DNA of 64,000 bases from Shinella granuli (GTDB taxonomy: Bacteria; Pseudomonadota; Alphaproteobacteria; Rhizobiales; Rhizobiaceae). Under the pieces are notes generated by a model. That model searched no databases. It saw only the letters and a list, made by a program, of their open reading frames with translations, and was not told the origin of the DNA. Location: positions 62,001 to 126,000 of the forward strand of contig NZ_SLVX01000010.1 in assembly GCF_004341885.1 (NCBI RefSeq). Reading direction: 5' to 3'. Every line of letters starts with the position of its first letter. Position 1 is the stretch's first letter. A program made the translations under genes and the position numbers. This document shows positions 44,533-62,081 of the stretch, piece after piece.

Positions 44533-44546
44533 TTGACGCAGATCAT
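44533..44546 (+). promoter_or_regulatory. FNR/FixK-type box a
   Basis: TTGACGCAGATCAT is a near-perfect FNR-family site (TTGAY-N4-ATCAA with the last base changed). Its centre is about 76 bases before the universal stress protein ATG, and a TAGGCT hexamer (44570-44575) lies about 33 bases downstream of the centre, where a class II promoter would have its -10. Confidence 0.6.
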
Positions 44547-44615
44547 CGCGGCGCGGCCGAATTGGAGGCTAGGCTCTTCTTCGTTGGGCAACCATTCAGG
44601 CGAAGGAGTTCGAAA

Positions 44616-45446
44616 ATGTCTTTCAAGACCATACTCTCGCTCATCGGCACGACAAACGCCGAAGCGGATATCGACAAGGCCGCGACCTTGACGGCGGAGC
44701 TGGAGGGGCATCTGTCCGTGGTGGCGCTGCGAACCGCGATATCACCGTTCGGTGCGGATTATCCGGCCGCCGCGGCTTGGCTGAACGAACGTCAAAAGGA
44801 GATCGATGGATTGATAGACGTCCGGCGCCTGGCCGACGACCGTTGCCGGAAAGGTAGGCTGCCGTTCGACATCGACCATATCTACGATGACCGGTTCATC
44901 ATCGAAAGCAACATCGGCATGCGCGCGATGTATGCCGACGTCGTCGTCGCCGGGGAGGGTATCCGTTCGGATACCGACTTGCGCAAGGCAGCCGTCGCGG
45001 CCACGGCTTTCAATTCCGGCACGCCGCTCCTCCTGATGCCGAAAACGGGTCGCGTCAGCCTCAGGCCGAAAAATGTCCTTCTGGCTTGGAACTCGCGTCC
45101 GCAGGCCGCCAGCGCAGCGAAGGCCGCAATCGAGATGCTTGCAGGGGCCGATGCGGTTCACCTCACCGTTGTCGATCCGGACACATCCTATTTTGGGAAC
45201 GGCGGAGAACCGGGCGCAGACATGGCGGCGTACTTGTCCCGTCATGGCGCAAAAGTCGTCGTCGAACAGCTGGCAAGCGGGGATCGGGCGACGGAGGAGG
45301 TGATCCGGCAGCATGCGCTCGAACTCGGCTGCGATATGATCGTCATGGGAGCCTACGGCCATTCGCGCCTGCGCGAGCGCGTGTTCGGCGGCGTCACCGC
45401 GTCGATCCTCGAGAATTGCGACATACCCGTCTTTATGGCGCGGTAA
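44616..45446 (+). CDS. Universal stress protein, tandem-domain
   Basis: This 276-residue protein has two UspA-like halves. The second half is well conserved, with NVLLAWNSRPQAASAAKAAI near residue 152 and the nucleotide-binding GCDMIVMGAYGHSRLRERVF near 247, followed by GGVTASILENCDIPVFMAR. The first half is degenerate and lacks the GxxGHS ATP motif. Usp proteins promote survival in starvation and oxygen limitation. GAAGGAG lies 7 bases before the ATG. The FNR-type box a upstream indicates microaerobic induction. It is one of three usp genes in this region. Confidence 0.88.
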   Translation: MSFKTILSLIGTTNAEADIDKAATLTAELEGHLSVVALRTAISPFGADYPAAAAWLNERQKEIDGLIDVRRLADDRCRKGRLPFDIDHIYDDRFIIESNIGMRAMYADVVVAGEGIRSDTDLRKAAVAATAFNSGTPLLLMPKTGRVSLRPKNVLLAWNSRPQAASAAKAAIEMLAGADAVHLTVVDPDTSYFGNGGEPGADMAAYLSRHGAKVVVEQLASGDRATEEVIRQHALELGCDMIVMGAYGHSRLRERVFGGVTASILENCDIPVFMAR

Positions 45447-45530
45447 GGATCGAAGCGCCTCGGCCATCTGTCCAGCGCCGGGGCGATCCTATCAATCTGT
45501 GGCCGTTTGCCGTGCCGTCCAGGCAGCCTG

Positions 45531-45569
45531 TCCGGAGTTGCCGAGGGCGGCGGTCCCGTGGCCTCCGGA
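45531..45569. terminator. Inverted repeat between convergent genes
   Basis: TCCGGAG (45531-45537) and CTCCGGA (45563-45569) can pair across 25 bases between the convergent stress-protein and DUF4010 genes. It is a weak candidate for a bidirectional terminator, with no T-run. Confidence 0.25.
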
Positions 45570-45617
45570 TAGGCTGATCCTCGCTTCGTGACTCAAGGAT
45601 GGTAAGGTGGGCTGCTG

Positions 45618-46880
45618 TCAAGCCAGCGGCAGGGCGTAGGCGGCATAGGCCGCCGTGCCGGCGACGAGCGTGATGGCGGCAAGCGGCAGGCTGAAGGAGG
45701 CGGGTGCGAGCACGGCTGCGATTCCCGCGCGGCACAGGGCATTCGTCGCCATGGCTGCCAGGATCGCCTTTGCGATCACGTCGAGCGGCAGCACATCCCT
45801 GCCCATTTGCAGAGCGGTCAGCACGGCGACGTCCACATCGACCGTGCCTGTCAATGCCGTCGTAGCCAAAAGACCGGAGCTGCCGAACTGCGAGACCAGA
45901 ACAGCGCTCGTAATGCCGGCCACCGCGAAAATCGTCGCGAAGATCAGGAGTGGACCGATTTCGAACGGGTTGCTGGCCGGTACGTCCGCGAAGGGCTTGT
46001 TCTGCGGCCAGTAGAACATCGCGAGCCCGCATGCGGAGAATATGACTGCGGCCGTGGCGGCCGCCGGGCCGACAAGAATGATCGCGGTCGGGTCGATCAG
46101 CAGGATCAGCCCTATCACGCGCGTGATGGATACGGCTGCACCCAGCGCTGCGGCGCCGGCGAGCGGAAGCGGATCGACGGACAGTTTGGCGGTTCGCGCC
46201 AGAACCATGGTGACGGCGGTCGACGATACCAGGGAACCGGCAATCGCACTCAGGACGAAGCCCTTCCTTGCCCCGAACATCCTGACGGCGATATAGCCGA
46301 GGAACGAGAGGCTCGCGGTCAGGACGGTGAAGAGCCATACCTTTCTTGGATTGAGGCCTCCCCAGGGGTCGATGGTCTCGTCCGGCAGGATCGGCAGGAT
46401 CACGGCCGTCATGACGGCCAGCATCATTGCAGAGCGCAGTTCCACCCAGGTCAGGCGCTTCAGGAAACCGTGCAGGACGTCCCGGCTTGCAAGCGTGGCC
46501 GCAAGAGCCGCCCCTCCGGCTGCCGCCGCCTGGGCGTCCCCGGCCACAGCCAGCCCGCCGAGAGCGAAAACGCCAAGGCCTGCCATGACGGTGGTGACGC
46601 TGTAGTCCGAATCCGATTGCGCCTCGCGCAGCTTGAACACGCCCAGCGTGACGGCGAAGCCGAGGAAACCGATCGGAAACACCATCGGATAGTGGAGGGA
46701 TGCCGCGACGGCGGCCAGCACGCCGCCGAGAAGCCCCGATATCCCGAATGTGCGCATGCCGGCGGTTCTGCTGCCCGCGGGCGCCCGGCGTTCCTGCCAG
46801 CCGCGCTCGAGCCCGACCAGAAGGCCGATCGAAAGGGCAATGCCAAGTCTGGCTATGAGTGTGTCCATCGCCCGCGCCAT
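45618..46880 (-). CDS. DUF4010 / MgtC-type multi-pass membrane protein
   Basis: This roughly 420-residue integral membrane protein has about 12 hydrophobic segments. The N-terminal part (ALSIGLLVGLERGWQERRAP, AGMRTFGISGLLGGVLAAVA) is typical of MgtC/SapB-like proteins, and the C-terminal DUF4010 half includes SSTAVTMVLARTAKLS and ALTGTVDVDVAVLTALQMGR. The family is thought to act in ion homeostasis or transport; the function is not established. I use the ATG at 46880, though one at 46868 is equally plausible. It is divergent from the P-type ATPase gene, with FNR-type box b between them. Confidence 0.8.
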   Translation of the reverse strand: MARAMDTLIARLGIALSIGLLVGLERGWQERRAPAGSRTAGMRTFGISGLLGGVLAAVAASLHYPMVFPIGFLGFAVTLGVFKLREAQSDSDYSVTTVMAGLGVFALGGLAVAGDAQAAAAGGAALAATLASRDVLHGFLKRLTWVELRSAMMLAVMTAVILPILPDETIDPWGGLNPRKVWLFTVLTASLSFLGYIAVRMFGARKGFVLSAIAGSLVSSTAVTMVLARTAKLSVDPLPLAGAAALGAAVSITRVIGLILLIDPTAIILVGPAAATAAVIFSACGLAMFYWPQNKPFADVPASNPFEIGPLLIFATIFAVAGITSAVLVSQFGSSGLLATTALTGTVDVDVAVLTALQMGRDVLPLDVIAKAILAAMATNALCRAGIAAVLAPASFSLPLAAITLVAGTAAYAAYALPLA

Positions 46881-46955
46881 CTGGATTGATCCCACAGGCC
46901 GGTGCGCGGCCATGGGCTGTGAAAAGCCACTGTAGACGAGTTGTGGCCTTTGGAA

Positions 46956-46969
46956 TTGATCTTGCGCAA
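46956..46969. promoter_or_regulatory. FNR/FixK-type box b
   Basis: TTGATCTTGCGCAA has the FNR-family layout TTGAT-N4-xxCAA in the divergent region between the DUF4010 gene and the P1B-type ATPase gene. TATTCA (46993-46998) lies about 33 bases right of its centre. The right half deviates from GTCAA/ATCAA, so this is the weakest of the five sites. Confidence 0.5.
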
Positions 46970-47028
46970 GGTGGGCATGGTCGTTTGCGGCCTATTCATC
47001 CGGTATTCTGCCGATGGGAGAAGGGAAC

Positions 47029-48870
47029 GTGCCCCAAGCGAACCAGGGCTACTGGCCGCGGCATTCCAGCATGATACTGGTCGCGGTCGCAGCCGGAGGG
47101 CTTTTGATCGGGCTGGTCTTGTCGTGGCAGGCCGCCCGATATGCCGGTTTGGTCTGGACCATCGCGACGCTGGTGGTGCTTGCCAGCCTGTTCGTCCAGG
47201 TTGCCGGGGCGCTGCGTCGGGGCGATATCGGGCTCGATATCGTCGCGGCACTTTCCATGTCTGCGGCGATTGCATTCAACGAACCGCTTGCGGGAAACGT
47301 CGTCGGCGTGATGTATGCCGGCGGCCAGTTGCTCGAAGCCTTTGCCGAAGGGCGAGCGCGCCGGGAGATGACGGCCCTGATGGGCCGCGTTTCGCATTCT
47401 GCCATGCGCTACGGTTCATCGGGGCTCGAAGAGGTCGCGATCTCGCAGATACGGCCGGGCGACCGGCTGCTTGTCCGGCAAGGTGAGGTGCTCCCGGTGG
47501 ACGGGGTCGTGTCCGGCGATGCGGCGGCGCTCGATATGGCGGCATTGACGGGAGAGTCCTTGCCGCGGTCCGTTCCGCCGGGCGGTGAGGCCCTGAGCGG
47601 CTCCACCAGCATGGGAGCGGCCTTCGACCTCGTCGCGAGCCGGAGTGCCGCCGAAAGCACCTATGCGGGGGTCGTGCGCCTGGTCGAGGCCGCGCAAGCC
47701 ATCAAGGCGCCCATGGTCCGCATGGCGGATCGCTTTGCGATGGGCTTTCTGCTTTTGACCATCGGCATTGCGGGCCTCGCCTGGTATTTGTCGGAAGATC
47801 CGATCCGGGCGCTCGCCGTCCTTGTTGTCGCGACGCCCTGTCCTCTCATCCTTGCGGTTCCTGTCGCCATCATTTCCGGAATGTCGCGAGCAGCAGCGAT
47901 CGGCGTCCTCGTGAAGAACGGCGGCATGCTCGAAATGCTGGCACGCGTGCGGACGGCGGTTCTCGACAAGACCGGCACGCTGACCCATGGCCAGGCTGCG
48001 GTGATGGATATCAGGACGACGCCGGCTTTCGCGGCGGAAACGGTTCTGCAGGCGGCCGCGAGCCTCGATCAGGCTTCCGGGCATGTCGTCGCCGCCGCGC
48101 TGGTTCATGTTGCAACCGAAAGGGGCCTGCCCCTGTCGAAGCCGGAAAGCGTGCAGGAAACGCCAGGGACAGGCATTGAAGGGTGCGTGGACGGAAGAAG
48201 GGTCGTGGTCGGCGGGAGCGGTTTCGTGCAGCGCACATCCGGCTGTGATGATCCGCACGCCCTGATATCGCCCGAGATGCGAGCCTCCATGACCGTTGCC
48301 GTCGCCATCGATGGCGTGCTGGCGGGCATGATCGTTCTGAAGGACCAGATCCGCGCGGACGCGGTGTCGGTTCTGAACGACCTTCGGGCTGCCGGCATCC
48401 GGAGGCTCGTGCTGGCGTCGGGAGATCGCGTGGAGATCGCGCAGGCTGTGGGCAGGGCGCTTGGCATGGATGCCGTCCTGGGCGACCTGACGCCCGAAGC
48501 CAAGGTGGCCGCCGTCCGGGCGGAGGCGCGCGACGGCCCCGTGATGATGGTGGGCGATGGCGTCAACGATGCGCCGGCGCTCGCCGCGGCCGATATCGGC
48601 GTTGCCATGGGCGCGCGCGGCACGGCCTCGTCGTCGGAGGCCGCTGGCATCGTGCTTCTTGTCGATGAGCTCGCTCCGCTGGTCAAGGCGATTGCCATCG
48701 CGCGCCGAAGCCATCGGATCGCGCTCCAGAGCGTATCGGTGGGCCTTGCGCTTTCGATCGGCGCGATGGTCGTGGCGGCGTGCGGATATCTGCAGCCTCT
48801 CGAGGGCGCGATCCTTCAGGAGGCGATCGACGTGGCCGTGATCCTCAATGCATTGCGGGCGCTCCGGTAA
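47029..48870 (+). CDS. P1B-type heavy-metal-translocating P-type ATPase with a TPC motif
   Basis: This 613-residue metal-pumping ATPase has the actuator TGES (AALTGESLPRS) near 175, the membrane motif ATPCPLILAVPVAIISG near 267, the phosphorylation site LDKTGTLTHG near 313, and the hinge MMVGDGVNDAPALAAADIGV near 508. The TPC in place of the copper-type CPC and the absence of an N-terminal metal-binding domain place it near P1B-4/P1B-5 pumps, whose cargo may be Fe, Ni, Co or Mn. I prefer the GTG at 47029, which follows GGAGAAGGGAA; an ATG at 47014 lacks a ribosome site. FNR-type box b upstream suggests microaerobic expression, as for rhizobial metal ATPases near fix genes. Confidence 0.87.
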   Translation: MPQANQGYWPRHSSMILVAVAAGGLLIGLVLSWQAARYAGLVWTIATLVVLASLFVQVAGALRRGDIGLDIVAALSMSAAIAFNEPLAGNVVGVMYAGGQLLEAFAEGRARREMTALMGRVSHSAMRYGSSGLEEVAISQIRPGDRLLVRQGEVLPVDGVVSGDAAALDMAALTGESLPRSVPPGGEALSGSTSMGAAFDLVASRSAAESTYAGVVRLVEAAQAIKAPMVRMADRFAMGFLLLTIGIAGLAWYLSEDPIRALAVLVVATPCPLILAVPVAIISGMSRAAAIGVLVKNGGMLEMLARVRTAVLDKTGTLTHGQAAVMDIRTTPAFAAETVLQAAASLDQASGHVVAAALVHVATERGLPLSKPESVQETPGTGIEGCVDGRRVVVGGSGFVQRTSGCDDPHALISPEMRASMTVAVAIDGVLAGMIVLKDQIRADAVSVLNDLRAAGIRRLVLASGDRVEIAQAVGRALGMDAVLGDLTPEAKVAAVRAEARDGPVMMVGDGVNDAPALAAADIGVAMGARGTASSSEAAGIVLLVDELAPLVKAIAIARRSHRIALQSVSVGLALSIGAMVVAACGYLQPLEGAILQEAIDVAVILNALRALR

Positions 48871-48911
48871 CGCGGGAAGCCGGCCTGTCCTGCGGGACCT
48901 TTCCCGCCGTT

Positions 48912-51629
<2,718 letters not shown>

Positions 51630-51663
51630 GCGCTTCTCCTTTGCCATCACACCGTCACGCCGA

Positions 51664-52530
51664 TCATCCATCGGATCGCACGCCCCTGCCGGGAACGATC
51701 ATCACGTCGCACTCCACCTCTTCCAGAAGCGCCTCGGCGACGCTGCCGATCAATGCGCCGAGAAGGCCGGTCCGGCCGTAGGTGCCGGCAAGCAGCAGGT
51801 CGATGTCTTCCTTGATCGCGAATTCGGCAAGGAGGGGTGCGGGATCGCCATGGGCGACATGGATGCCGACATCGTTTCCCGCATCCGGCAGATGACTTGC
51901 GACGAAGGCTTTCGCATCCTCCCGCGCCAGGTTCGCCCGGCCTCGCTCGGAACCATCCTTGTCGTCGAGGAAACCGCGGAACGGCATGTCGAAGGCGTGG
52001 AAAAGCGTGATGTGGGCCGGCGGGAAGAGCAGGGCGCCCATTTCGAGCGCGCCGGTGGAGGCTTCGGAAAGGTCGCTGGCCACCACGATACGGCGATAGG
52101 CCTGCCGCACCCGCTTCTTCACCACCAGCACCGGCAGGCCGGCCTGGCGCACCACGCTTGCCGTCGTGCCGCCGACCAGCATGTGCCCGAGCGCATCGTT
52201 GCCGGCAATGCCGGTGACGATCATGTCGCAATTCCTTTCGCGCGCGACGGCGAGGATGACGTCGGCCGGCTCTCCCTCGCGGATGTCGATATCCCAGGCG
52301 ATATCGCCGACATCTGCGAACTCGCGATCGAGATGGCTGGACGCGCGCCGCCTGGCCGCGGCGAGGATGGTGGAGGTCGTGCCGGTCATGCTGACGACGT
52401 CGAGCGCATGCACGATCGTCAGCTTCGCCTTCCATGCCCGGGCAAGATCGAGCGCACGGTCCTGCGCCCTGTCGCAGCGTGCGCTGAGGTCTGTCGCCAG
52501 GAGAAGGTGACGAGGGGGATTTTCGGTCAT
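51664..52530 (-). CDS. Universal stress protein, tandem-domain
   Basis: This 288-residue protein has two UspA domains. The first has HLLLATDLSARCDRAQDRAL and MIVTGIAGNDALGHMLVGGT with a GxxG phosphate loop, and the second RIVVASDLSEASTGALEMGA and LLLAGTYGRTGLLGALIGSV. Such tandem Usp proteins bind ATP or AMP and aid survival without oxygen. The ATG at 52530 follows AAGGATG. It lies between ackA (55 bases) and the P2 ATPase gene (34 bases) on the same strand, so it belongs to the FNR-type operon that starts at phaC. Confidence 0.9.
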   Translation of the reverse strand: MTENPPRHLLLATDLSARCDRAQDRALDLARAWKAKLTIVHALDVVSMTGTTSTILAAARRRASSHLDREFADVGDIAWDIDIREGEPADVILAVARERNCDMIVTGIAGNDALGHMLVGGTTASVVRQAGLPVLVVKKRVRQAYRRIVVASDLSEASTGALEMGALLFPPAHITLFHAFDMPFRGFLDDKDGSERGRANLAREDAKAFVASHLPDAGNDVGIHVAHGDPAPLLAEFAIKEDIDLLLAGTYGRTGLLGALIGSVAEALLEEVECDVMIVPGRGVRSDG

Positions 52531-52585
52531 GGGCAAGCATCCTTGTCGTGTTGGCGCAGCGGGACGGTGCGGTTGCTGGCGGCGG

Positions 52586-53773
52586 TCACCTCGCGATGCC
52601 CTCCAGGATCGAGACGGTTTCCTCAGCGATCACCTGCTCCTCGTCGGTAGCGATGACGAAAGCGGTGATGCGGCTTTTCGGGGTGCTGATGCGGGTGGCG
52701 TTTGCGGCATTGGCGGCGGGATCGAGGTCGAGGCCGAGCCAGCCGAGCCGCTGGCAGACATCGGCCCGGACCGCCGGCTGGTTCTCGCCGACGCCGGCGG
52801 TGAAGACGACGGCGTCGAGACCGCCGAGCGTGGCGGCGAGCCGGGCGATCTCGCCGGCGATGCGGAAGGTGAAGAGCTCGATCGCCTCCCTCGCCTCCGG
52901 CGCATCGCTGGCGAGAAGATCGCGGCTGTCGGCGCTGATGCCGGAGACGCCGAGAAGGCCGGACTTGTGATACAGGAGATCCTCGACATCCCGCAGAGTG
53001 CGTTCCCCAGGCCCCAGGAGATGCAGCAGCACGCCGGGATCGAGTGCGCCGCATCGCGTCGCCATCGGAATGCCGTCGAGGGTCGAAAAGCCCATGCTGG
53101 TGTCGCGGCTGGTGCCCTCGTTGAGGCCGCACAGGCTCGCGCCGCTGCCGAGATGGGCGACCACGACCCTGCCGCTGGCCCTTTCGGGCGCAAGGCGGGT
53201 GAGTTCACCGGCGATGAACTTGTAGGAGAGGCCGTGGAAGCCGTACCGCTTGATACCGTGCTCGTGGAGGGCGCGCGGGATGGCGAAGCGGCGCACGAGC
53301 GCGTCGTTCGTCCGATGAAAGGCGGTGTCGAAGGAGGCAGCCTGCGGCAGGTCCGGCAGCACGCTGCCGATCGCCCGGATCAGGCGCAGGCTCTGCGGCT
53401 GGTGGAGCGGCGCCAGTGCCGTCAGCGCGTCGATCGCCGCGATCGTTTCCGCATCGAGGCGCACGGGACCGTCGAACCTGTCGCCGCCGTGCACGACGCG
53501 ATGCCCGACGAGCGCGACCTTCCCGAGGTCGAAGTTGCGGCCGAGGATGGCGAAGGTCTCTGAGAGGATGTCGCTCAGGTCCTCGTCCGGCCGGGCCTCC
53601 AGCGTGGTTTCGATCCGCTGCTCACCCTCGCCTGCCCGCAAGGTCAGCGGATCGTGGCGAAAATCTATCACGCCGCGCGCGATCCGGGCAGGACCGGCGA
53701 CATCAAGCTCGAACAGGCCGATCTTCACGGTGGAGGAGCCGGCGTTGAAGGTCAGCAGGGTTTTCCGGCTCAT
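52586..53773 (-). CDS. ackA: Acetate kinase
   Basis: This 395-residue acetokinase has the N-terminal phosphate motif LTFNAGSSTVKIGLFELD, GHRVVHGGDRFDGPV near 105, the catalytic SFDTAFHRTN near 160, VAHLGSGASLCGLNEGTSRD near 195, and TAGVGENQPAVRADVC near 320. It converts acetyl phosphate plus ADP to acetate plus ATP. No phosphotransacetylase gene is in the window, so the acetyl phosphate most probably comes from the phosphoketolase encoded at 56329 on the other arm of the same divergent promoter. Its start overlaps the stop of a 59-codon gene by 4 bases. Confidence 0.95.
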   Translation of the reverse strand: MSRKTLLTFNAGSSTVKIGLFELDVAGPARIARGVIDFRHDPLTLRAGEGEQRIETTLEARPDEDLSDILSETFAILGRNFDLGKVALVGHRVVHGGDRFDGPVRLDAETIAAIDALTALAPLHQPQSLRLIRAIGSVLPDLPQAASFDTAFHRTNDALVRRFAIPRALHEHGIKRYGFHGLSYKFIAGELTRLAPERASGRVVVAHLGSGASLCGLNEGTSRDTSMGFSTLDGIPMATRCGALDPGVLLHLLGPGERTLRDVEDLLYHKSGLLGVSGISADSRDLLASDAPEAREAIELFTFRIAGEIARLAATLGGLDAVVFTAGVGENQPAVRADVCQRLGWLGLDLDPAANAANATRISTPKSRITAFVIATDEEQVIAEETVSILEGIAR

Positions 53774-53949
53774 GCGGACAGTCCTTTCATCGGATACGGC
53801 GTTCCGGCCATCTTGGCGGGCAGGAGGCCGACCGTCCACAGGCCATGGGCGACGAACCGGGCGATCGAGGCGGTATCGCCGGGTCGAGGTGCGCCGAAGG
53901 TCCTGTTGCGGAGAATGTCGGCCAGCGGAGTTTCACCTTTGCAAAACAT
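53770..53949 (-). CDS. Small 59-residue protein between PHA synthase and acetate kinase genes
   Basis: This short reading frame overlaps the phaC end by 17 bases and the ackA start by 4 bases (ATGA), as expected of a translated gene in a tightly packed operon. The product begins MFCKGETPLADILRNRTFGA and ends AKMAGTPYPMKGLSA. It has no membrane helix or signal peptide and one cysteine. GGGGAC lies close upstream of the ATG. I do not recognise it. It could be a small regulator of either neighbour, or only a coupling leader for ackA. Confidence 0.5.
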   Translation of the reverse strand: MFCKGETPLADILRNRTFGAPRPGDTASIARFVAHGLWTVGLLPAKMAGTPYPMKGLSA

Positions 53950-55735
53950 AGGTCCCCGGAGCATCGGCGAGCGATCTGTTGCCCTTGCGGCGGGCGCCCA
54001 TCGCCGGTGCTGCGACCCGCTCCGGCGCCGAACGCGCGGCAAGCCATCTCGTCCAGGCCTCCCACCACGAGCCCGGTCGCCCCTCGGCGGTTTCCGCCCA
54101 TTCGTCTGCGCCCACGCATAGCCCTTCGGCCGCGCGCGTGGCGATGCGGTAGCGGCGGCGCGGGTGGCCCGGTTCGCTGACGATGCCGGCATTGTGGCCG
54201 CCGCTGGTGAGGACGAAGGTGAGGTCGGTATTGCTGAGGTAATGGATCTTGTAGACCGATCGCCAGGGCGCGACGTGATCGCGCTCGGTGCCGACCACGA
54301 ACATCGGCACACGGATGTTCTGGATGGCGGCAGGGTGCCCGTCGACCAGGAAGCGCCCGGCGGCAAGCTCGTTGCCGAGATAAAGGCGTTTCAGGTATTC
54401 GGCATGCATCCGGTAGGGCATGCGGGTGGAATCGGCGTTCCAGGCCATCAGGTCGATCATCGGCGTGCGCTCGCCCATCATGTGCTCGTGCACGATGCGC
54501 GACCAGACGAGGTCGTTCGAGCGCAGGAGCTGGAAGGCGCCTGCCATCTGGTCGGCCGAGAGATAACCGCGGTTCCACATCATGCTTTCGAGCACATGCA
54601 ACTGGCTGTGGTCGATGAAGAGCGCGAGTTCGCCGGGCTCCGTGAAATCCGTCTGCGCCGCAAGCAATGTCAGGCTCGCCAGCCGGTCGTCACCCCGGCG
54701 TGCCATGTCGGCGGCTGCGATGGACAGCAGCGTGCCGCCCAGGCAATAGCCCGCGGCATGGACCCTGCGGCCGGGAACGACGGCATCGACCGCCTCGAGC
54801 GCCGCCATCACGCCGAGCCGGCGATAGTCGTCCATCGTCAGGTCGCGGTCGGCCGCCGTCGGGTTGCGCCAGGAAATGCAGAAGACGGTGTGGCCCTTCT
54901 CCACCAGGTAACGCACGAGCGAATTGTGCGGCGAAAGGTCGAGGATGTAATATTTCATGATCCAGGCCGGCACGATCAGCACCGGTTCGGCCAGCACGGT
55001 TTCGCCTGCCGGCGCGTACTGGATCAGCTCGATCAGGTGGTTGCGGTAGAGCACCTTGCCCGGCGTTGCGGCGACATCCCGGCCGACGACGAAATTCTCC
55101 GTGCCGGCCGGCTGCTGTCCGGTGGCGAGGCGCCCTACATCCTCCATCCAGTTGCGCAGGCCGTCGAGGAAATTCATGCCGCCGGATCGGATCGTCCTTT
55201 CCAGCACCTCCGGATTGGCGAAGGGCAGGTTGGAAGGCGAGAAGACATCGAGGATCTGGCGCGCGGCGAAGGACACGATATCCTGGTGATGCGGCGCCAC
55301 ACCGGGCACCTCGTTCGTGACATTGTGCCACCATTGCTGCTGGAGCAGGAAGGCCTGCGCCCAGATGCTGAACGGCGGCTTTTTCCAGCGCGGGTCGGCA
55401 AAGCGGTAGTCTCCGGCGAGAGGCTCGATGCAGGGCGGTGCATCCGGATCGGCTGCCGCTGCCGCGAGATGGCAAAGCAGGCGGACGGCCTTGCGGTTGG
55501 CCTTGTCGAGGAGTTCCAGCCGCTTGCCGGGCGCGGAGGCGAGATGGATCGACCAATCCATGAGGGCAAGCGCGAAGGCGGCAGGCGACAGGCCCGCGCT
55601 GAACTGCCCGGTGAACGCCTCCCGCATGCGGTCGATCGCGCGGAAGGCTTCGCTTCCCAGCTCCTCCATGCGCGGAACGGGCGGCAGGCCTGCCGCGTGC
55701 CGGAAAGGCAATGTCTCGCTCATCGGGCTGTTCAT
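53933..55735 (-). CDS. phaC: Poly(3-hydroxyalkanoate) synthase
   Basis: This 600-residue PHA synthase of the class I type has the N-terminal region with WWHNVTNEVPGVAPHHQDIV near 160 and the alpha/beta-hydrolase core with VLIVPAWIMKYYILDLSPHN near 262. The lipase-like box GYCLGGTLLSIAAADMA near 335 holds the catalytic cysteine. TDFTEPGELALFIDHSQL, an Asp region, and TSGGHNAGIVSEPGHPRRRY (catalytic His) follow. It polymerises hydroxyacyl-CoA into storage granules. AAGGAG seven bases before the ATG at 55735 fixes the start. It leads the operon phaC-small gene-ackA-usp-P2 ATPase under FNR-type box c. A phasin-like gene lies across the divergent promoter. Confidence 0.92.
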   Translation of the reverse strand: MNSPMSETLPFRHAAGLPPVPRMEELGSEAFRAIDRMREAFTGQFSAGLSPAAFALALMDWSIHLASAPGKRLELLDKANRKAVRLLCHLAAAAADPDAPPCIEPLAGDYRFADPRWKKPPFSIWAQAFLLQQQWWHNVTNEVPGVAPHHQDIVSFAARQILDVFSPSNLPFANPEVLERTIRSGGMNFLDGLRNWMEDVGRLATGQQPAGTENFVVGRDVAATPGKVLYRNHLIELIQYAPAGETVLAEPVLIVPAWIMKYYILDLSPHNSLVRYLVEKGHTVFCISWRNPTAADRDLTMDDYRRLGVMAALEAVDAVVPGRRVHAAGYCLGGTLLSIAAADMARRGDDRLASLTLLAAQTDFTEPGELALFIDHSQLHVLESMMWNRGYLSADQMAGAFQLLRSNDLVWSRIVHEHMMGERTPMIDLMAWNADSTRMPYRMHAEYLKRLYLGNELAAGRFLVDGHPAAIQNIRVPMFVVGTERDHVAPWRSVYKIHYLSNTDLTFVLTSGGHNAGIVSEPGHPRRRYRIATRAAEGLCVGADEWAETAEGRPGSWWEAWTRWLAARSAPERVAAPAMGARRKGNRSLADAPGTYVLQR

Positions 55736-55851
55736 GGATGTCTCCTTCGGCAGGTTCATGTGCACTGCTGGAAGCAACCGCATTCGCATTGCGACCCCAT
55801 GACCGGATGGCGGATCGAGCGCCACCCTATACAGGGCAGTCTCCATCTCCG

Positions 55852-55865
55852 TTGACACAGATCAA
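55852..55865. promoter_or_regulatory. FNR/FixK-type box c in the phaC / phasin-phosphoketolase divergent promoter
   Basis: TTGACACAGATCAA matches the FNR-family pattern TTGAY-N4-ATCAA. On the right, TAGAAT (55887-55892) is centred 31 bases from the box centre, the class II spacing. The box also lies about 120 bases before phaC on the left. One site could control both arms of the island. Confidence 0.7.
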
Positions 55866-55927
55866 GTTTCATTGTGCGAAATCGCCTAGAATGAAATGAT
55901 GTCGAAACGGGAAAAAGGGAGTTCGTC

Positions 55928-56254
55928 ATGCCTGAAGTCAATGCGACGGATGCGGAGCGGGTTGTTGCGGCCTTTGCCCCCATGGCGGCCGATCCGCTTC
56001 TCCTGACGCCCTTCGAGATCGGAATGGCGATGTACCGGCACTGGCTGGGCGCGACGTCGCGCCTGCTCCAGGACCAATCCGCCCATCTGCAGAATCTCGC
56101 CGAATGCGACAATCCCTTCAACATGCTGGTCTATCAGACGTAGTTCGCCGAGAAATCCGTCGCGGCCGGCCTCGATGAACTGCGCCGGGGCGTCGATACG
56201 GTCACGGAAGCCGCCCGTGGCCATATGGCCGTCGGCGGGACGTTGCCGCAATAG
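55928..56254 (+). pseudogene. Phasin-like granule protein gene interrupted by an amber codon
   Basis: From the ATG at 55928 the frame encodes 71 residues (MPEVNATDAERVVAAFAPMA ... FNMLVYQT), then a TAG at 56141-56143. The same frame continues for 36 more residues, [20 protein letters not shown] and on to a second TAG at 56254. The continuous helical pattern and the FAEKS segment resemble phasin-type proteins that coat PHA granules, which suggests a nonsense mutation in a formerly 108-residue gene. Either a 71-residue short form is functional or the gene is inactive; a CAG-to-TAG change or a sequencing error would explain it. It is in the plus arm of the FNR-type promoter c, 70 bases after the box centre. 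Confidence 0.55.
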
Positions 56255-56328
56255 GACCGTGCCGTTGCCGGAGCAAACCGGAGGGTATGGGCGTTGAAGC
56301 CTTCGAACAGGCGACAAGGAGAGAGGGC

Positions 56329-58695
56329 ATGGCGAACGATCCTGACACCGGGGACCTCGCGCTGATTGACCGTTACTGGCGGGCGGCCAACTATCTTTCC
56401 GTCGGCCAGATCTACCTGATGGACAATCCGCTGCTCCGCGAGCCGCTCAAGGCGGAGCATGTGAAGCCGCGCCTTCTCGGCCACTGGGGCACCACGCCGG
56501 GTCTGAATTTCATCTACGCCCACCTCAACCGGATCATCAAGGCCCGCGATGCCGACATCCTCTACATCTGCGGCCCCGGCCACGGCGGGCCTGGCATGGT
56601 GGCCAACACCTATCTGGAAGGCACCTATTCGGAAATCTATCCGGAGGTGGGCGAGGACGAGGCAGGGCTGAAGAAACTCTTCCGGCAGTTCTCCTTCCCC
56701 GGCGGCATTCCGAGCCATGCGGCGCCCGAGACGCCCGGCTCGATCCACGAGGGCGGCGAGCTCGGTTATGCGCTGGTGCATGCCTATGGCGCGGCCTTCG
56801 ACAATCCCGACCTCGTCGTCGCCTGCGTGGTGGGGGACGGCGAGGCCGAGACCGGCCCGCTCGCCGCCGCCTGGCATTCCAACAAGTTCCTGAGCCCCGT
56901 CAGCGACGGCACGGTGCTGCCGATCCTGCATCTCAACGGCTACAAGATCGCCAACCCGACCGTGCTGGCACGCCTGCCGGACGAAGAGCTTGCCCATCTC
57001 TTCACCGGCTATGGCTACGATCCGATCTTCGTGGAGGGCCACGAGCCGCAGGCCATGCACCGGGACATGGCGGCGGCGCTCGACACGGCCTTCGACCGCA
57101 TCGCGGCCATCCGCGCCGCAGCGAAGGGCGAACCCGCCCGAAGGCCGCACTGGCCGATGATCGTGCTGCGCAGCCCCAAGGGCTGGACGGGGCCGAAGGA
57201 GGTGGACGGCAAGGTGGTCGAGAACCATTGGCGCTCGCACCAGGTACCCGTTTCCGAATGCCGCTCGAACGCCGCCCATCGCGACATCCTCGAAGCCTGG
57301 ATGCGCAGTTACGATCCGGAAGATCTCTTCGACGCGGCCGGCCGCCTCAAGCCGGACCTGCGGGCGCTCGCGCCGACAGGGGAACGCCGCATGGGTGCCA
57401 GCCCGCACGCCAATGGCGGCGTCCTGCGCAAGGCGTTGCGCACGCCGGACATTCGTGACTATGCGGTCGCCGTCGACAATCCCGGGGCTATCGACGCGCA
57501 GGCGACGAAGGTTCTCGGCGACTATCTGCGCGACGTGATCCGGCTGAACGCGGCGGAAAGCAATTTCCGCGTCTTCGGCCCGGACGAGACGGCCTCGAAC
57601 CGGCTCGGCAGCGTCTTCGAGGCGACGGATCGCGCATGGATGGCCGAGACGCTGCCGACGGACGATCATCTTTCGCCGGACGGCCGCGTCATGGAAGTCT
57701 TGAGCGAGCATCTTTGCCAGGGCTGGCTGGAAGGCTATCTCCTCACCGGCCGCCACGGCTTCTTCTCCTGTTACGAAGCCTTCATCCACATCGTCGATTC
57801 GATGTTCAACCAGCATGCCAAGTGGCTGAAGGTCGCGCGCGAGCTGTCCTGGCGCAAGCCGGTCTCCTCGCTCAACTACCTGCTGACCTCCCATGTCTGG
57901 CGGCAGGACCACAACGGCTTCTCGCACCAGGATCCCGGCTTCGTCGACCTCGTCGCCAACAAGGGCGCGGATATCGTGCGCGTCTACCTGCCGCCGGACG
58001 CCAACACGCTGCTTTGGGTCGGCGATCATTGCCTGAAGACCTGGAACCGCATCAACGTCATCGTCGCCGGCAAGCAGCCGGCGCCGCAATGGCTGGCCAT
58101 GGATGAGGCGGTGCGCCATTGCGAGGCCGGGCTCGGCATCTGGGACTGGGCGGGCACGGAAGAGGGGCTTGGCCCGGACATCGTGATGGCCTGCGCCGGC
58201 GACGTGCCGACCATGGAAACGCTCGCCGCCGTCGATCTCCTGCGCCGGGCGCTGCCGCACCTGCGCATCCGCGTCGTCAATGTCGTCGACCTGATGGTGC
58301 TGCAATCGCCGCAGCACCATCCGCACGGCATTTCGGACGCGGCTTTCGACCGGATCTTTACCCGCGACCGGCCGGTGATCTTCGCCTATCACGGCTATCC
58401 CTACCTCATCCATCGGCTTGTCTACAAACGCACGAACCACACGAACGTGCATGTCAGGGGCTTCATCGAGGAGGGCACGACCACCACGCCCTTCGACATG
58501 GCCGTGATGAACGAGCTCGACCGCTATCATCTCGCCATCGAGGCCGTCGAGCGCCTGCCGGCTCTGGGTGAAAAGGCGGCGGATATCGTTGCCGCGCTGA
58601 AGGGGAAGCTTGCCGAGCACCACGCCTATGTGCGCGAGCATGGCGAGGACATGCCGGAAATCCGGGACTGGAAATGGCCCTATCCGCGGCAGTAG
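56329..58695 (+). CDS. xfp: Xylulose-5-phosphate/fructose-6-phosphate phosphoketolase
   Basis: This 788-residue phosphoketolase has the family openings [40 protein letters not shown] near 60 and [20 protein letters not shown] near 88. The ThDP motif [20 protein letters not shown] is near 178, with [15 protein letters not shown] following. The C-terminal half has [20 protein letters not shown] near 478. It cleaves xylulose-5-P or fructose-6-P with phosphate to acetyl phosphate plus a triose or tetrose phosphate. With the acetate kinase across the promoter it forms an ATP-yielding shunt that avoids pyruvate dehydrogenase. AAGGAGAGAGGGC precedes the ATG. Confidence 0.96.
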
Positions 58696-58734
58696 CCGTG
58701 CCGTGGGCAAAGCGGTCCGTGAGGGGAGGGGATC

Positions 58735-60093
58735 ATGCTGTCACTGAAATCGCTCGGCGGCGCCGGAACCGTCACCGGTTCGAAGCATCTGCTTTCCCTC
58801 GGCGAGCATCGCATCCTGGTCGATTGCGGTCTCTTCCAGGGCCTGAAGAACCTGCGTGACCTCAACTGGACGCCCCTGCCGGTCTCCCCGCACGCCATCG
58901 ATGCGGTGATCCTCACCCATGCGCATCTCGATCATAGCGGATACCTGCCGCGTCTGGTGCATGCGGGCTATCGCGGCAAGGTCTATGCAACGCCGGCCAC
59001 CCGCGACGTCGCCGAACTGATCCTCATGGACAGCGGCCACCTGCAGGAAAAGGATGCGGACTTCCTCAACCGGCACAAGTTGTCGCGCCACCAGCCGGCC
59101 CTTCCGCTCTATGGCGTGCGGGACGCGCAACGGGCCGTCGAGCACTTCTCGACCGTGGAGTTCGGACAGGCGGTGCGGCTTGCCAACGGCGCGACCTTCC
59201 GCTTCCGTCCCGCCGGGCACATTCTGGGCGCAGCGAGCGTGGACCTCGAATGGGGCGGCCGCCGGATCGTCTTTTCCGGCGATATCGGGCGCTACAGCGA
59301 TCCGCTCATGCCGGACCCGGCTCCGCCGCCGGAGGCCGACTATATCCTCATCGAATCCACCTACGGCAATCGCATCCACGACAGGACCGACCCGGCCGAT
59401 GCCCTGCAAGCGGTCATCGACCGGACGGTCAGGCGCGGCGGCACGCTCGTCGTCCCGGCCTTCGCCGTCGGCAGGGCGCAGGAACTGCTCTACTATTTCT
59501 GGAAGCTGAAGCGGGCGGGCCGTCTTCCGGCCGTTCCGCTGTTCCTCGACAGTCCGATGGCCATCGACGCGACGGGGCTTCTGGGCCGGCACATGCAGGA
59601 TCACCGTCTCGATATGGAAACCTGCAAGGCCGTGTTCTCCATCGCGCGCTACACCGACGACGTCGAGGCTTCGAAGGCGATCAGCGCCAACCGGTTTCCC
59701 AAGATCGTCATTTCGGCTTCGGGCATGGCGACGGGCGGGCGCGTCCTGCATCATCTCAAGGCGTTCGCGCCCGATGCCCGCAATACGATCCTGCTTGCCG
59801 GCTTCCAGGCGGCCGGCACGCGAGGCCGCTCGCTCCAGGAAGGCGCGAGGGAGCTGAAGATCCATGGCTCCTGGGTGCCGGTCAATGCGGAGGTGGCGCA
59901 TCTCGACATGCTCTCGGCCCATGCCGATGCCGACGAACTGATGCGCTGGCTCTCCGCCTGCCCGCGCCCGCCGCGCAAGGTCTTCATCGTGCACGGCGAG
60001 GCCGAAGCCTCCGAAGCGTTGCGCATCCGCATCGCGCGGGAGCTTGGATGGGCGAGCGTCGTGCCGCGGCTCGATCAGGAATTCGTGTTGTGA
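58735..60093 (+). CDS. Metallo-beta-lactamase / beta-CASP RNase-like protein
   Basis: This 452-residue MBL-fold protein has a beta-CASP domain and an RNA-specificity C-terminus. ILTHAHLDHSGYLPRLVHAG near residue 59 is the metal-binding HxHxDH, GAASVDLEWGGRRIVFSGDI near 165 carries further ligands, ESTYGNRIHD near 205 is the beta-CASP motif A, and ISASGMATGGRVLHHLKAFA near 325 and LSAHADADELMRWL near 393 supply the later histidines. Family members are RNA exo/endonucleases of the CPSF-73/RNase J kind. The gene follows phosphoketolase by 40 bases, so it is probably cotranscribed. It may adjust mRNA turnover during oxygen limitation. Confidence 0.88.
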   Translation: MLSLKSLGGAGTVTGSKHLLSLGEHRILVDCGLFQGLKNLRDLNWTPLPVSPHAIDAVILTHAHLDHSGYLPRLVHAGYRGKVYATPATRDVAELILMDSGHLQEKDADFLNRHKLSRHQPALPLYGVRDAQRAVEHFSTVEFGQAVRLANGATFRFRPAGHILGAASVDLEWGGRRIVFSGDIGRYSDPLMPDPAPPPEADYILIESTYGNRIHDRTDPADALQAVIDRTVRRGGTLVVPAFAVGRAQELLYYFWKLKRAGRLPAVPLFLDSPMAIDATGLLGRHMQDHRLDMETCKAVFSIARYTDDVEASKAISANRFPKIVISASGMATGGRVLHHLKAFAPDARNTILLAGFQAAGTRGRSLQEGARELKIHGSWVPVNAEVAHLDMLSAHADADELMRWLSACPRPPRKVFIVHGEAEASEALRIRIARELGWASVVPRLDQEFVL

Positions 60094-60109
60094 GCCCGGC
60101 AGGCCGGGT

Positions 60110-60725
60110 TCAGGCGGAGCGGAGGTCCTTGCGGATCAGGACGAGGGTCGCGTCGTCGGGATAGGGGATCGCGACGAAACCCTGCTCCCGTTCGAGTTCA
60201 ATGGCCTCGTGGTTTTCGCGGCTTTCGAGCGATTCCAGGGTCTCGACGCCGCGAGACTGCGCGTAGCGGGCCGCATGGCGCAGCATTTCCCAGGCGATGC
60301 CCTTGTGCTTGTCCTCGGCGCGAACGGAGATCGCCACCTCCGCCTTCGTCATCGACGGATCGCAGGCAACCATCGCCGTCGCGACAATCGCCTTGCCGTC
60401 ATCGGCAAAGGCAAGGAAGTGCTCGGTCGCGCGATGATCGACCTGCGTCATGGCGAGGAGACGTTCATGGCTCATCTCGCGCACGCCGCGCGAGGAGACG
60501 TTCATGGCTCATCTCGCGCACGCCGCCGAGGAAACGGAAGCGTAGGTCTGCGGGCGCCACATGGGCGAAGAACGCGGCCAGAAGCGCCTCGTCCTCGGGG
60601 CGGACCGGGCGAATGTGGAGCACGAACCCGGTGCGGGTCACCAGATCGCAGCTCCAGAGGTCGGCGGCCGGCCGCACGGATGAACCGCCCGCTCGTTCCG
60701 GTTCCTCGTAGACAAGTGCTATCAT
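60110..60725 (-). pseudogene. GNAT acetyltransferase gene frameshifted by a 37-bp tandem duplication
   Basis: Reading from the ATG at 60725 (GAAGGAG upstream) the frame gives MIALVYEEPERAGG and a GNAT-type entry HIRPVRPEDEALLAAFFAHV up to VREMSHERLLA, then runs into the duplicated copy out of phase and soon departs. The other frame carries the same VREMSHERLLA and then continues MTQVDHRATEHFLAFADDG, VAISVRAEDKHKGIAWEMLR and GVETLESLESRENHEAIELE to a stop at 60110. Removing one 37-base copy restores a GNAT domain of about 190 residues resembling the acetyltransferase part of PatZ-type protein lysine acetyltransferases. FNR-type box d lies 80 bases before the start. Confidence 0.7.
60453..60526. 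repeat. Perfect 37-bp tandem duplication inside the GNAT gene
   Basis: Bases 60453-60489 and 60490-60526 are identical (each begins GCGAGGAGACGTTCATGG and ends CGCACGCCGC). Because 37 is not a multiple of three, the second copy shifts the reading frame. Loss of one copy by slippage would restore the gene. Confidence 0.9.
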
Positions 60726-60798
60726 CGCATTCTCCTTCGCAAGGTTCGAGATCGATTTCCGATATCGGCCATTGTGCACCCGCTGCCGCAACCGGGCT

Positions 60799-60812
60799 TT
60801 GATGCGGGTCAA
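60799..60812. promoter_or_regulatory. FNR/FixK-type box d in the GNAT / ornithine carbamoyltransferase divergent region
   Basis: TTGATGCGGGTCAA fits the rhizobial FixK pattern TTGAT-N4-GTCAA exactly. Leftward, CACAAT (complement of 60771-60776) is centred about 32 bases away and would serve the GNAT gene. Rightward the box is about 165 bases before the carbamoyltransferase ATG. Confidence 0.7.
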
Positions 60813-60969
60813 GGTGATGCGGAGGGACCGGGTGCAGTCTTTCCACATTTTCGAATGCCGGGAGGCGGTGCCGTGCCTGACGCAGAACATGGCCGCCAGG
60901 GCCGCGGCGGGGGCCACTGCATGACCTGCCCCATCGCGCGCGATCCGATCTGACAGAGGAGAAACCAAC

Positions 60970-61971
60970 ATGCCCGTCAATCTGCATGGCTGCAGTGTGC
61001 TGACGCTGGACGATTTTTCCGGCGCGGAGATCCGCTACCTGCTGCGTCTTGCCGCCGAGCTCAAGGCGGCGAAGCAGGCCGGCACGGAGGTGCCGCGTCT
61101 TGCCCGCAAGAACATCGCCCTGATCTTCGAAAAGGAATCCACCCGCACCCGCTCCGGCTTCGAGGTCGCGGCCTACGATCAGGGCGCGCACGTCACCTAT
61201 ATCGGCCCGTCCGGCAGCCATATCGGCCACAAGGAAACCATGAAGGACACGGCGCGCGTACTCGGACGCATGTACGACGCCATCGAGTTCAGGGGCTTCA
61301 GCCAGCATCAGGCGGATGTGCTGGCCGCCTATGCCGGCGTGCCGGTCTATAACGGGCTGACCGACGAGGCGCATCCGACCCAGGTTCTCGCCGACTTCAT
61401 GACGATGCGCGAATTCACCCACAAGCACCTGTCGGACACGACGCTCGTCTTCGTCGGCGCGGGGCGGGACAATGTGGCGACGTCGCTCGCGATCGGCGCG
61501 GCGAAGGTCGGCATGGACATGCGCATCGCTTCGCCCCGCGCGCTCTGGCCGGACGATGCGTTCTGCGATCGCGTCCGGTCCATGGCAGAAGCGAACGGCG
61601 GCAGCTTCCGGCTGGATGAGGATGTCCATGCCGCCGTGCTCGGGGCTGATTTCGTCTATACCGACGTCTGGCTTTCCATGGGCGAGAACGAGAGCGCCTG
61701 GCGGGAAAGGATAGAGCTCCTGACGCCCTATCGCGTGACCCGCGCGCTGTTGGCCGCGACGAGAACGCCGCATACAAAGTTCATGCATTGCCTGCCGGCC
61801 TTCCACAATGCGGAGACGGAGGTCGGGCAGGACATCGCCCGAAGCTACGGCATCGATTGCATGGAGGTCACCGACGAGGTCTTCGAATCCGCCGCATCGA
61901 TCGTGTTCGACCAGGCGGAAAACCGCATGCACACGATCAAGGCGATCCTCGTCGCCACTATCGGAGCGTGA
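60970..61971 (+). CDS. Ornithine carbamoyltransferase, catabolic (ArcB-like)
   Basis: This 333-residue carbamoyltransferase has the carbamoyl-phosphate site [20 protein letters not shown] near residue 52, the second-site [15 protein letters not shown] near 136, and the ornithine loop [12 protein letters not shown] near 272. The wording [32 protein letters not shown] and the length resemble catabolic ArcB enzymes more than short anabolic ArgF. ArcB phosphorolyses citrulline to ornithine and carbamoyl phosphate for ATP production. No arcA or arcC is present here, so partners must be elsewhere. Its location in an FNR-type island supports an anaerobic-energy role. Confidence 0.9.
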
Positions 61972-62004
61972 CATGAGGATCGGTGCCCGGCGGGTTTGCT
62001 GCAC

Positions 62005-62018
62005 TTGATCGGCGTCAA
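62005..62018 (+). promoter_or_regulatory. FNR/FixK-type box e
   Basis: TTGATCGGCGTCAA fits TTGAT-N4-GTCAA exactly and is followed by TATCCT (62040-62045) centred 31 bases away, the class II arrangement. It is 70 bases before the ATG of the universal stress protein gene at 62082. Confidence 0.72.
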
Positions 62019-62081
62019 GGTGACGTTTTGCATGTGCACTATCCTTTACCCAGATAGAAAACAGGACGGAGGAGCAGTCCG

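What the first reader, a model, noticed from the sequence alone, without database searches (positions are those of the whole stretch)
44533..62018. Five FixK/FNR-type boxes tie an 18-kb island into one oxygen-limitation regulon
The sites 44533-44546, 46956-46969, 55852-55865, 60799-60812 and 62005-62018 all fit TTGAY-N4-NNCAA-like patterns; two are exact TTGAT-N4-GTCAA. Three lie in divergent promoters, so about 13 genes come under them. Two (c, e) have a -10-like hexamer centred 31 bp away, the class II FNR geometry. The gene set (usp x3, phaC, phasin-like, xfp, ackA, arcB-like, two P-type ATPases, beta-CASP RNase) looks like a microaerobic survival programme beside a replication origin. The regulator itself is not in the window.
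Basis: partly seen in the sequence, partly recalled or inferred. Interest (0 to 1): 0.8.

Follow-up and report, generated by a model that had tools for sequence, protein, structure and literature searches.

The report
Oxygen-responsive survival gene island in Shinella
Five matching control sites really do look able to switch an 18-kb block of fermentation and stress-survival genes on when oxygen runs out, a known kind of bacterial regulation predicted here in a bacterium where it has yet to be tested.

Summary
All five boxes are where stated. A matrix built only from ChIP-mapped FnrL sites of Rhodobacter ranks four of them 1-4 in the 64-kb window; box b is weak by score. Exact TTGAY-N4-RTCAA occurs 27 times in the genome against 7.4 per off-register spacing, including before fnrN|hemN, ccoN, ccoG, hemA, pseudoazurin and two usp genes. 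Three of the 27 lie in this island. Among congeners each box ranks 1st to 5th of the intergenic 14-mers for conservation.

The replicon is of Shinella type. The likely regulator is an FnrN encoded on another contig; no clear FixK was found. Relatives carry arcDABC behind box d and pta beside ackA; in the window arcD, arcA and arcC are gone. The theme is ATP supply without respiration, and survival.

The kind is known: phosphoketolase-acetate kinase, phaC2, usp and an MBL hydrolase depend on FixK2 in Bradyrhizobium (PMC9104804). New member of a known kind; no expression data.

The parts
44533..44546 (+). Box a, variant FNR box TTGACGCAGATCAT before usp1
   Evidence: Rank 4 of window by FnrL matrix; best conserved intergenic 14-mer over 4 rows
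44570..44575 (+). -10-like TAGGCT, centre 33 bp from box a
   Evidence: GCTAG conserved in 6 of 6 rows
44616..45446 (+). universal stress protein 1
   Evidence: PF00582
45618..46913 (-). MgtC/SapB-type membrane protein with DUF4010; start may be 46867
   Evidence: PF13194, PF02308
46929..46934 (-). -10-like TACAGT, centre 31 bp from box b, towards mgtC
   Evidence: TAGAAT or TACAAT in three congeners by reading
46956..46969 (+). Box b, variant TTGATCTTGCGCAA (fits TTGA/C-N6-T/GCAA)
   Evidence: Rank 7, 2.3 expected by chance; best conserved intergenic 14-mer over 5 rows
47014..48870 (+). heavy-metal P1B-type ATPase; no N-terminal metal domain found
   Evidence: TIGR01525, TIGR01512 over cut-off
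48912..51671 (-). cation P-type ATPase (Ca2+-like); start uncertain
   Evidence: TIGR01522 below its cut-off
51664..52536 (-). universal stress protein 2 (two Usp stretches)
   Evidence: PF00582
52586..53839 (-). acetate/propionate kinase; start probably near 53773
   Evidence: NF005462 over cut-off
53933..55738 (-). class I-like PHA synthase phaC
   Evidence: PF07167, PF12551; TIGR01838 below cut-off
55824..55829 (-). -10-like TAGGGT, centre 32 bp from box c, towards phaC
   Evidence: same in 7 of 8 rows, TAAGGT in the eighth, whether phaC or pta follows
55852..55865 (+). Box c, TTGACACAGATCAA, between phaC and phasin-xfp
   Evidence: Rank 1 of window; exact box in 8 of 8 rows
55887..55892 (+). 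-10-like TAGAAT, centre 31 bp from box c
55928..56143 (+). phasin-like gene, cut short by an in-frame stop after 71 codons (108 aa in HZN7)
   Evidence: intact homologues match PF09361 just under cut-off
56287..58695 (+). phosphoketolase xfp
   Evidence: NF003621 over cut-off
58735..60093 (+). beta-CASP MBL-fold RNase-like protein
   Evidence: PF10996, PF07521
60110..60725 (-). GNAT acetyltransferase, frame disrupted by a 37-bp duplication relative to HZN7
60771..60776 (-). -10-like CACAAT, centre 32 bp from box d, towards GNAT
60799..60812 (+). Box d, TTGATGCGGGTCAA; stands before arcD in relatives
   Evidence: Rank 2 of window
60835..60840 (+). -10-like CAGTCT, centre 32 bp from box d (weak by score)
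   Evidence: conserved in 7 of 7 rows
60873..60953 (+). 26-codon frame ending in the last residues of ArcA, scar of an arcD-arcA deletion
60970..61971 (+). ornithine carbamoyltransferase; arcB by its place in relatives
   Evidence: TIGR00658 over cut-off; inside arcDABC of WSC3-e
62005..62018 (+). Box e, TTGATCGGCGTCAA before usp3
   Evidence: Rank 3 of window; rank 3 of 97 in conservation
62040..62045 (+). -10-like TATCCT, centre 31 bp from box e
   Evidence: CTATC conserved in 7 of 7 rows
62082..62903 (+). universal stress protein 3
   Evidence: PF00582

Best explanation
The island is part of a genome-wide FNR-type regulon. At very low oxygen an FnrN protein encoded on contig C1 (L026; a CX2CX7C cysteine motif that should carry an oxygen-labile Fe-S cluster) dimerises and binds the boxes at class II positions, with the -10 element 31-33 bp from the box centre. 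It switches on usp1, mgtC and/or the metal ATPase, phasin-xfp-RNase, phaC-ackA-usp2-cation ATPase, GNAT, arcB and usp3. Boxes c and d, and perhaps b, serve promoters in both directions. The products would supply ATP without respiration (phosphoketolase makes acetyl-phosphate, acetate kinase makes ATP; in relatives also the arginine deiminase pathway) and help the cell survive. Shown: box sequences, excess, positions, conservation, gene families, an fnrN gene. Inferred: binding, activation, oxygen response, metabolic role.
For: Matrix from 28 FnrL sequences of 27 ChIP regions (PMC2908626 Table 2) ranks boxes c, d, e, a 1-4 in the window. TTGAY-N4-RTCAA 27 in 6.59 Mb versus 148 over 20 other spacings (Poisson P 2e-8). 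Genome sites stand before fnrN|hemN, ccoN, ccoG, pseudoazurin, hemA, coxB, two usp. Conservation rank among intergenic 14-mers: a 1/163, b 1/133, c 2/179, d 5/128, e 3/97. A -10-like hexamer at 31-33 bp in 5 of 5 window boxes and 10 of 19 genome sites examined, against 14.8% of 924 intergenic positions. Exact boxes before arcD in WSC3-e, G017, G004 and G019. FNR box before phaC in 4 of 4 Paracoccus phaC loci read. In B. diazoefficiens phosphoketolase-acetate kinase, an MBL hydrolase, phaC2 and usp need FixK2 (PMC9104804 passage); phbC and uspA are FnrL-bound in R. sphaeroides.
Against: No transcript or binding data. Box b scores no better than chance (2.3 expected). About a quarter of the genome's exact sites are expected by chance from the off-spacing rate. 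Other CRP/FNR proteins (for instance on C3, C17, C58) could use the same box. Outside the genus the link is patchy: only 12 of 30 xfp loci have a site scoring 14 or more within about 1.5 kb (two of the 12 are the window itself and a congener), and the A. pusense and Rhodopseudomonas loci have none. A published reconstruction of FnrN/FixK regulons (PMC4999443) does not mention phosphoketolase, acetate kinase or universal stress in its main text. Phasin and GNAT are broken and arcB has lost its partners, so part of the island may no longer work here.
Confidence: 0.85

Rival explanations
1. The boxes are read by another CRP/FNR-family protein (for instance those on C58, C3 or C17) that answers to a signal other than oxygen, such as nitric oxide.
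For: These proteins exist in the genome; the C17 regulator has a box in front of its own gene. Dufour 2010 states that FNR, FixK and DNR recognise very similar sites.
Against: The same motif stands at fnrN|hemN, ccoN and ccoG, classic oxygen-controlled genes. The C58 gene has no FixL- or FixJ-like neighbour in the 4.5 kb read; by eye it lies beside iron-uptake-like genes and a transposase. The C17 protein is closest to FtrB.
Confidence: 0.12
2. Boxes c, d, e and a are real, but box b is a chance or unrelated element, for instance a metal-responsive operator of the ATPase containing the palindrome CTTGCGCAAG.
For: b scores at chance level; in the window its conserved block contains a separate perfect palindrome (read).
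Against: Block conserved over 5 rows, rank 1 of 133; fits the FixK2 consensus TTGA/C-N6-T/GCAA, and FixK2 targets with GCAA ends exist (PMC9104804); -10-like hexamer at 31 bp on the mgtC side; in H4-D48 an exact box lies beside it before the same ATPase.
Confidence: 0.3
3. The matches are chance and the genes are not co-regulated.
For: One-mismatch matches to TTGA-N6-TCAA are common in the window (17 found, 10.2 expected); the island was noticed after looking.
Against: Genome excess, matrix ranks, conservation, geometry.
Confidence: 0.02

Closest known systems
FixK2 regulon of Bradyrhizobium diazoefficiens (PMC9104804, two passages incl. part of Table 2; PMC6515984, passages)
   Same: Phosphoketolase-acetate kinase, an MBL hydrolase, phaC2, usp, HlyD and CBS genes depend on FixK2 and carry like boxes, including ATGA- and -GCAA variants
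   Different: FixK2 is induced there by FixLJ and the genes are scattered; here FnrN is the likely switch, the genes are contiguous, and P-type ATPases and arc genes join. Whether the MBL proteins are the same family was not tested
FnrL regulon of Rhodobacter sphaeroides (PMC2908626, section 9 part 1 and section 11 read)
   Same: 14-bp site; phbC, uspA, hemA, hemN, ccoNOQP bound; FnrN here scores best against the FnrL model
   Different: No phosphoketolase, acetate kinase or arc genes in the binding table
hFixL-FxkR-FixK / FnrN anaeroboxes of Rhizobium leguminosarum (PMC7888657, passages)
   Same: Same anaerobox; the pRlvB xfp-ackA stretch of 26 kb has 8 sites scoring 14 or more and lies beside a sensor kinase, a CRP-type regulator and a response regulator
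   Different: Own genome shows no close FixK; the passages do not mention phosphoketolase or usp
Anr-dependent anaerobic survival set of Pseudomonas aeruginosa (PMC5705914, passages)
   Same: ackA-pta, uspK and the regulator anr needed without oxygen; arcDABC reported earlier as needed
   Different: Pyruvate rather than phosphoketolase feeds the acetate kinase pathway; that screen itself saw no defect for single arc genes

Membership tests
FNR/FixK-type operator (anaerobox) | 14-bp inverted repeat TTGAY-N4-RTCAA | tested here: met
   Exact in c, d, e; one mismatch in a; two in b
FNR/FixK-type operator (anaerobox) | Scores with experimentally mapped sites | tested here: met
   Ranks 1-4 for c, d, e, a; not met by b, rank 7 with 2.3 expected
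FNR/FixK-type operator (anaerobox) | Lies at an activating distance from a promoter | tested here: met
   -10-like hexamer at 31-33 bp in 5 of 5 boxes; -10 weights recalled; no mapped start sites
FNR/FixK-type operator (anaerobox) | Conserved in relatives | tested here: met
Oxygen-limitation regulon | Induced at low oxygen through FnrN or FixK | not testable with these tools
   No expression data held
FnrN (oxygen-sensing FNR type) | N-terminal cysteine cluster plus CRP-type HTH | tested here: met
   CX2CX7C and a further cysteine in L002/L026; PF13545, PF00325, PF00027; NCBIfam FnrL best but below its cut-off, 224 of 300 bits
FixLJ-FixK cascade | A FixK protein without the cysteine cluster, and its sensor pair | tested here: inconclusive
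   FixK query: best hit FnrN 31%; C58 34% over residues 16-183. Kinase query: 53 hits, best 39%, not resolved
Arginine deiminase operon | arcA, arcB, arcC and arcD together | tested here: not met
   No arcD or arcC match in the window; genome-wide only the last 19 residues of arcA; arcC and arcD were not searched genome-wide. Intact in WSC3-e

The most novel reading that the evidence does not exclude
The island is a modular anoxia cassette in which the FNR promoter nodes are the fixed part and the gene cargo is swapped around them: box c keeps both its divergent -10 elements whether phaC, pta or both follow; the arc operon comes and goes between boxes d and e; the cassette sits on plasmids or on chromosome-sized contigs, and part of it (phaC-cation ATPase with an FNR box) recurs in Paracoccus.
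Probability: 0.45. Interest if true: 0.45.

Novelty: new member of a known kind. Interest (0 to 1): 0.35.

Why it matters
It extends a known oxygen-limitation programme, whose published examples seen here come from nodule, phototrophic and marine bacteria and Pseudomonas, to Shinella, and joins phosphoketolase, acetate kinase, PHB and (in relatives) arginine deiminase genes under one kind of switch. Shinella congeners offer natural cargo swaps around constant FNR promoters, which would let one test which genes matter for survival without oxygen.

Tried and rejected
FixK as regulator: a query with the CRP-type regulator of the Rhizobium pRlvB cluster gave no clear orthologue. A query with its kinase gave 53 hits and no firm answer. 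Cas14 label for the beta-CASP protein: NCBIfam match 381 bits against a cut-off of 800, so rejected. Link to the replication origin: set aside as incidental. The built-in control, the pattern read backwards (2 hits against 27), was set aside as too kind; I used off-register spacings instead.

Rows dropped or weak: of 24 genome sites outside the window I left 5 out of the -10 test (C10:136697 inside a gene; C1:12364, C4:11664, C8:211659, C12:122307, left out by eye) and chose sides by eye. For conservation ranks I dropped near-identical rows (HZN7, G015, G016) and, for box e, G011, whose box lies elsewhere; G005 and G010 in set e are near-identical, so e rests on about 3 lineages. G008 loci L074 and L075 gave no exact box. 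The ycnI query was out of frame and is not used. -10 weights are recalled E. coli frequencies. Gene calls come from a simple ORF script.

Not in print: the ten paper searches listed no paper on this Shinella island; only searches used the word Shinella, one search showed 20 of 119 papers and one search showed 6 of 49. Most subscription papers are not held.
Full report
Where it lies. The window is contig C10, 62001-126000, of a 6.59-Mb genome in 97 contigs. The island is 98.9% identical over its whole length to plasmid pShin-04 of Shinella sp. HZN7 and 91.5% to a Shinella WSC3-e plasmid (70% covered). Next to it are repA, repB (annotated in HZN7) and a third frame that I take for repC, so it sits on a repABC replicon. 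Congener G011 has a contig of the same length (4,605,385) as a Shinella PSBB067 record, so the 'genus' searched here is Shinella by inference.

The boxes. All five are present as stated. The independent test was a matrix built from 28 FnrL sequences in 27 regions mapped by ChIP in Rhodobacter sphaeroides (PMC2908626, section 11 read; two of the 28 are poor matches and were kept). It ranks c, d, e and a first to fourth among all positions in the window; matches as good are expected 0.02, 0.02, 0.05 and 0.15 times per 64 kb in third-order Markov sequence. Box b ranks seventh with 2.3 expected. Two sites outside the island (20379 and 35673) lie between a and b in rank.

Genome test. TTGAY-N4-RTCAA occurs 27 times; the same half-sites at 20 other spacings occur 148 times, 7.4 each, P 2e-8. 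So about a quarter of exact sites may be chance. Of the 24 outside the window, one (C10:136697) is clearly inside a gene and one (C12:122307) overlaps the 3' end of a frame; by my reading the other 22 lie between called frames or within about 100 bases of a frame's 5' edge. Neighbours include fnrN|hemN, ccoN, ccoG, pseudoazurin, 5-aminolevulinate synthase, coxB, two usp genes, an FtsH-like and a HlyD-type gene; several other sites have neighbours I did not identify. Three of the 27 fall in 17.5 kb of island against 0.07 expected, P 6e-5, post hoc.

Conservation. Alignments of each intergenic region with congeners show the box as an island of identity. Ranked among intergenic 14-mers by identity to the window, the boxes are a 1 of 163, b 1 of 133, c 2 of 179, d 5 of 128, e 3 of 97, over 4, 5, 6, 5 and 4 rows. 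The stretches that beat d lie at its conserved -10-like region. Box a keeps its odd CAT end in 6 of 6 rows, and b its GCAA end in 6 of 6. These variants have precedents: FnrL-bound sites beginning ATGA and the FixK2 consensus TTGA/C-N6-T/GCAA. In H4-D48 an exact box lies beside the b block.

Geometry. A hexamer scoring at least 2.5 lies 31-33 bp from the box centre in 5 of 5 window boxes and 10 of 19 genome sites tested, against 14.8% of 924 island intergenic positions and 5.4% of 20,000 random ones. Box c has one on each side (TAGAAT, TAGGGT); box d has CACAAT towards GNAT and a weak but conserved CAGTCT towards arc. The weights are recalled.

Gene content. Three Usp proteins, an MgtC/DUF4010 protein, a heavy-metal P1B ATPase, a Ca-like P-type ATPase, acetate kinase, PHA synthase, phosphoketolase, a beta-CASP MBL protein, GNAT, ornithine carbamoyltransferase. 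In WSC3-e box d stands about 60 bp before arcD-arcA-arcB-arcC and box e before usp3; pta replaces phaC beside ackA. G017, G004 and G019 also have arcD behind one or two exact boxes. In the window arcD, arcA and arcC are absent; genome-wide, a search for arcA finds only its last 19 residues, at 60894-60950, within a 26-codon frame before arcB. arcC and arcD were not sought elsewhere in the genome. A phosphate acetyltransferase domain exists on C18, 60% identity.

Regulator. L026 encodes a CRP-family protein with CX2CX7C and PF13545, PF00325 and PF00027 domains; NCBIfam ranks FnrL first (224 bits, cut-off 300), FixK 128, Fnr 101. It shares a box with hemN. A query with the CRP-type regulator of the pRlvB cluster has it as best hit. 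Hence FnrN, directly sensing oxygen, is the best candidate.

Spread. The MBL marker is in 11 of 21 genus genomes, own included. Xfp is in 44 of 151 family genomes; of the 30 best loci, own included, 12 have a site scoring 14 or more in the flanks (16 sites in 88 kb), and one site lies inside 70.6 kb of xfp genes. R. leguminosarum pRlvB has 8 such sites in 26 kb around its xfp-ackA genes and an Agrobacterium plasmid 5 (one inside a gene), but A. pusense pA and Rhodopseudomonas pBAL398.3 have none. I read 5 of the 16 Paracoccus records: four have phaC with a site 109-238 bp before it; the fifth lacks phaC and has no site within 2 kb of its ATPase.

Known or new. Dufour 2010 predicts phosphoketolase, CBS and HlyD genes in the FixK core regulon and usp in the FNR one, and reports FnrL binding at phbC. 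In B. diazoefficiens, phosphoketolase-acetate kinase, an MBL hydrolase, phaC2 and a usp gene fall in fixK2 mutants (PMC9104804, passage), and phosphoketolase, usp, phaC2 and a GNAT gene appear in the microoxia table of PMC6515984 (passages). A putative phosphoketolase fell about 9-fold in one of six conditions in an R. palustris fixK mutant (PMC3050613, passage). FnrL of Dinoroseobacter activates usp genes (PMC5398030, passages). Against: the FnrN/FixK reconstruction in PMC4999443 does not mention phosphoketolase, acetate kinase or universal stress in its main text, nor does PMC7888657. So the kind is known; this is a new, contiguous member with gene swaps around fixed promoters. I rate interest 0.35.

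Noticed in passing
window 60873-60970: Scar of a deletion that removed arcD and nearly all of arcA, leaving a 26-codon frame ending in the ArcA C-terminus just before arcB, behind box d.
   Followed up: yes
window 56141-56143: Phasin-like gene has an in-frame stop after 71 codons; the HZN7 copy is 108 aa.
   Followed up: partly
window 60454-60490: A 37-bp duplication relative to HZN7 breaks the GNAT frame.
   Followed up: partly
L023 11198 (G000:C10:136697): A fourth exact TTGAY-N4-RTCAA on the same contig lies near the 3' end of an SDR-like frame, so it is probably not a promoter site.
   Followed up: no
L035 3048 and L044 3003 (C6:298747, C32:33002): Two similar frames each have an exact FNR box 18 bp before the start; the one tested (L035) is a LuxR-type autoinducer-binding regulator, hinting at oxygen control of quorum sensing.
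   Followed up: partly
L041 2960 and 4949 (C23): HlyD-type and FtsH-like genes have exact boxes at their 5' ends; a HlyD-RbbA-permease set directly follows usp3 in WSC3-e (L050).
   Followed up: partly
L079 3259-6756: In R. leguminosarum pRlvB the xfp-ackA cluster lies beside a PAS kinase, a CRP-type regulator and a response regulator, an arrangement like hFixL-FixK-FxkR.
   Followed up: partly
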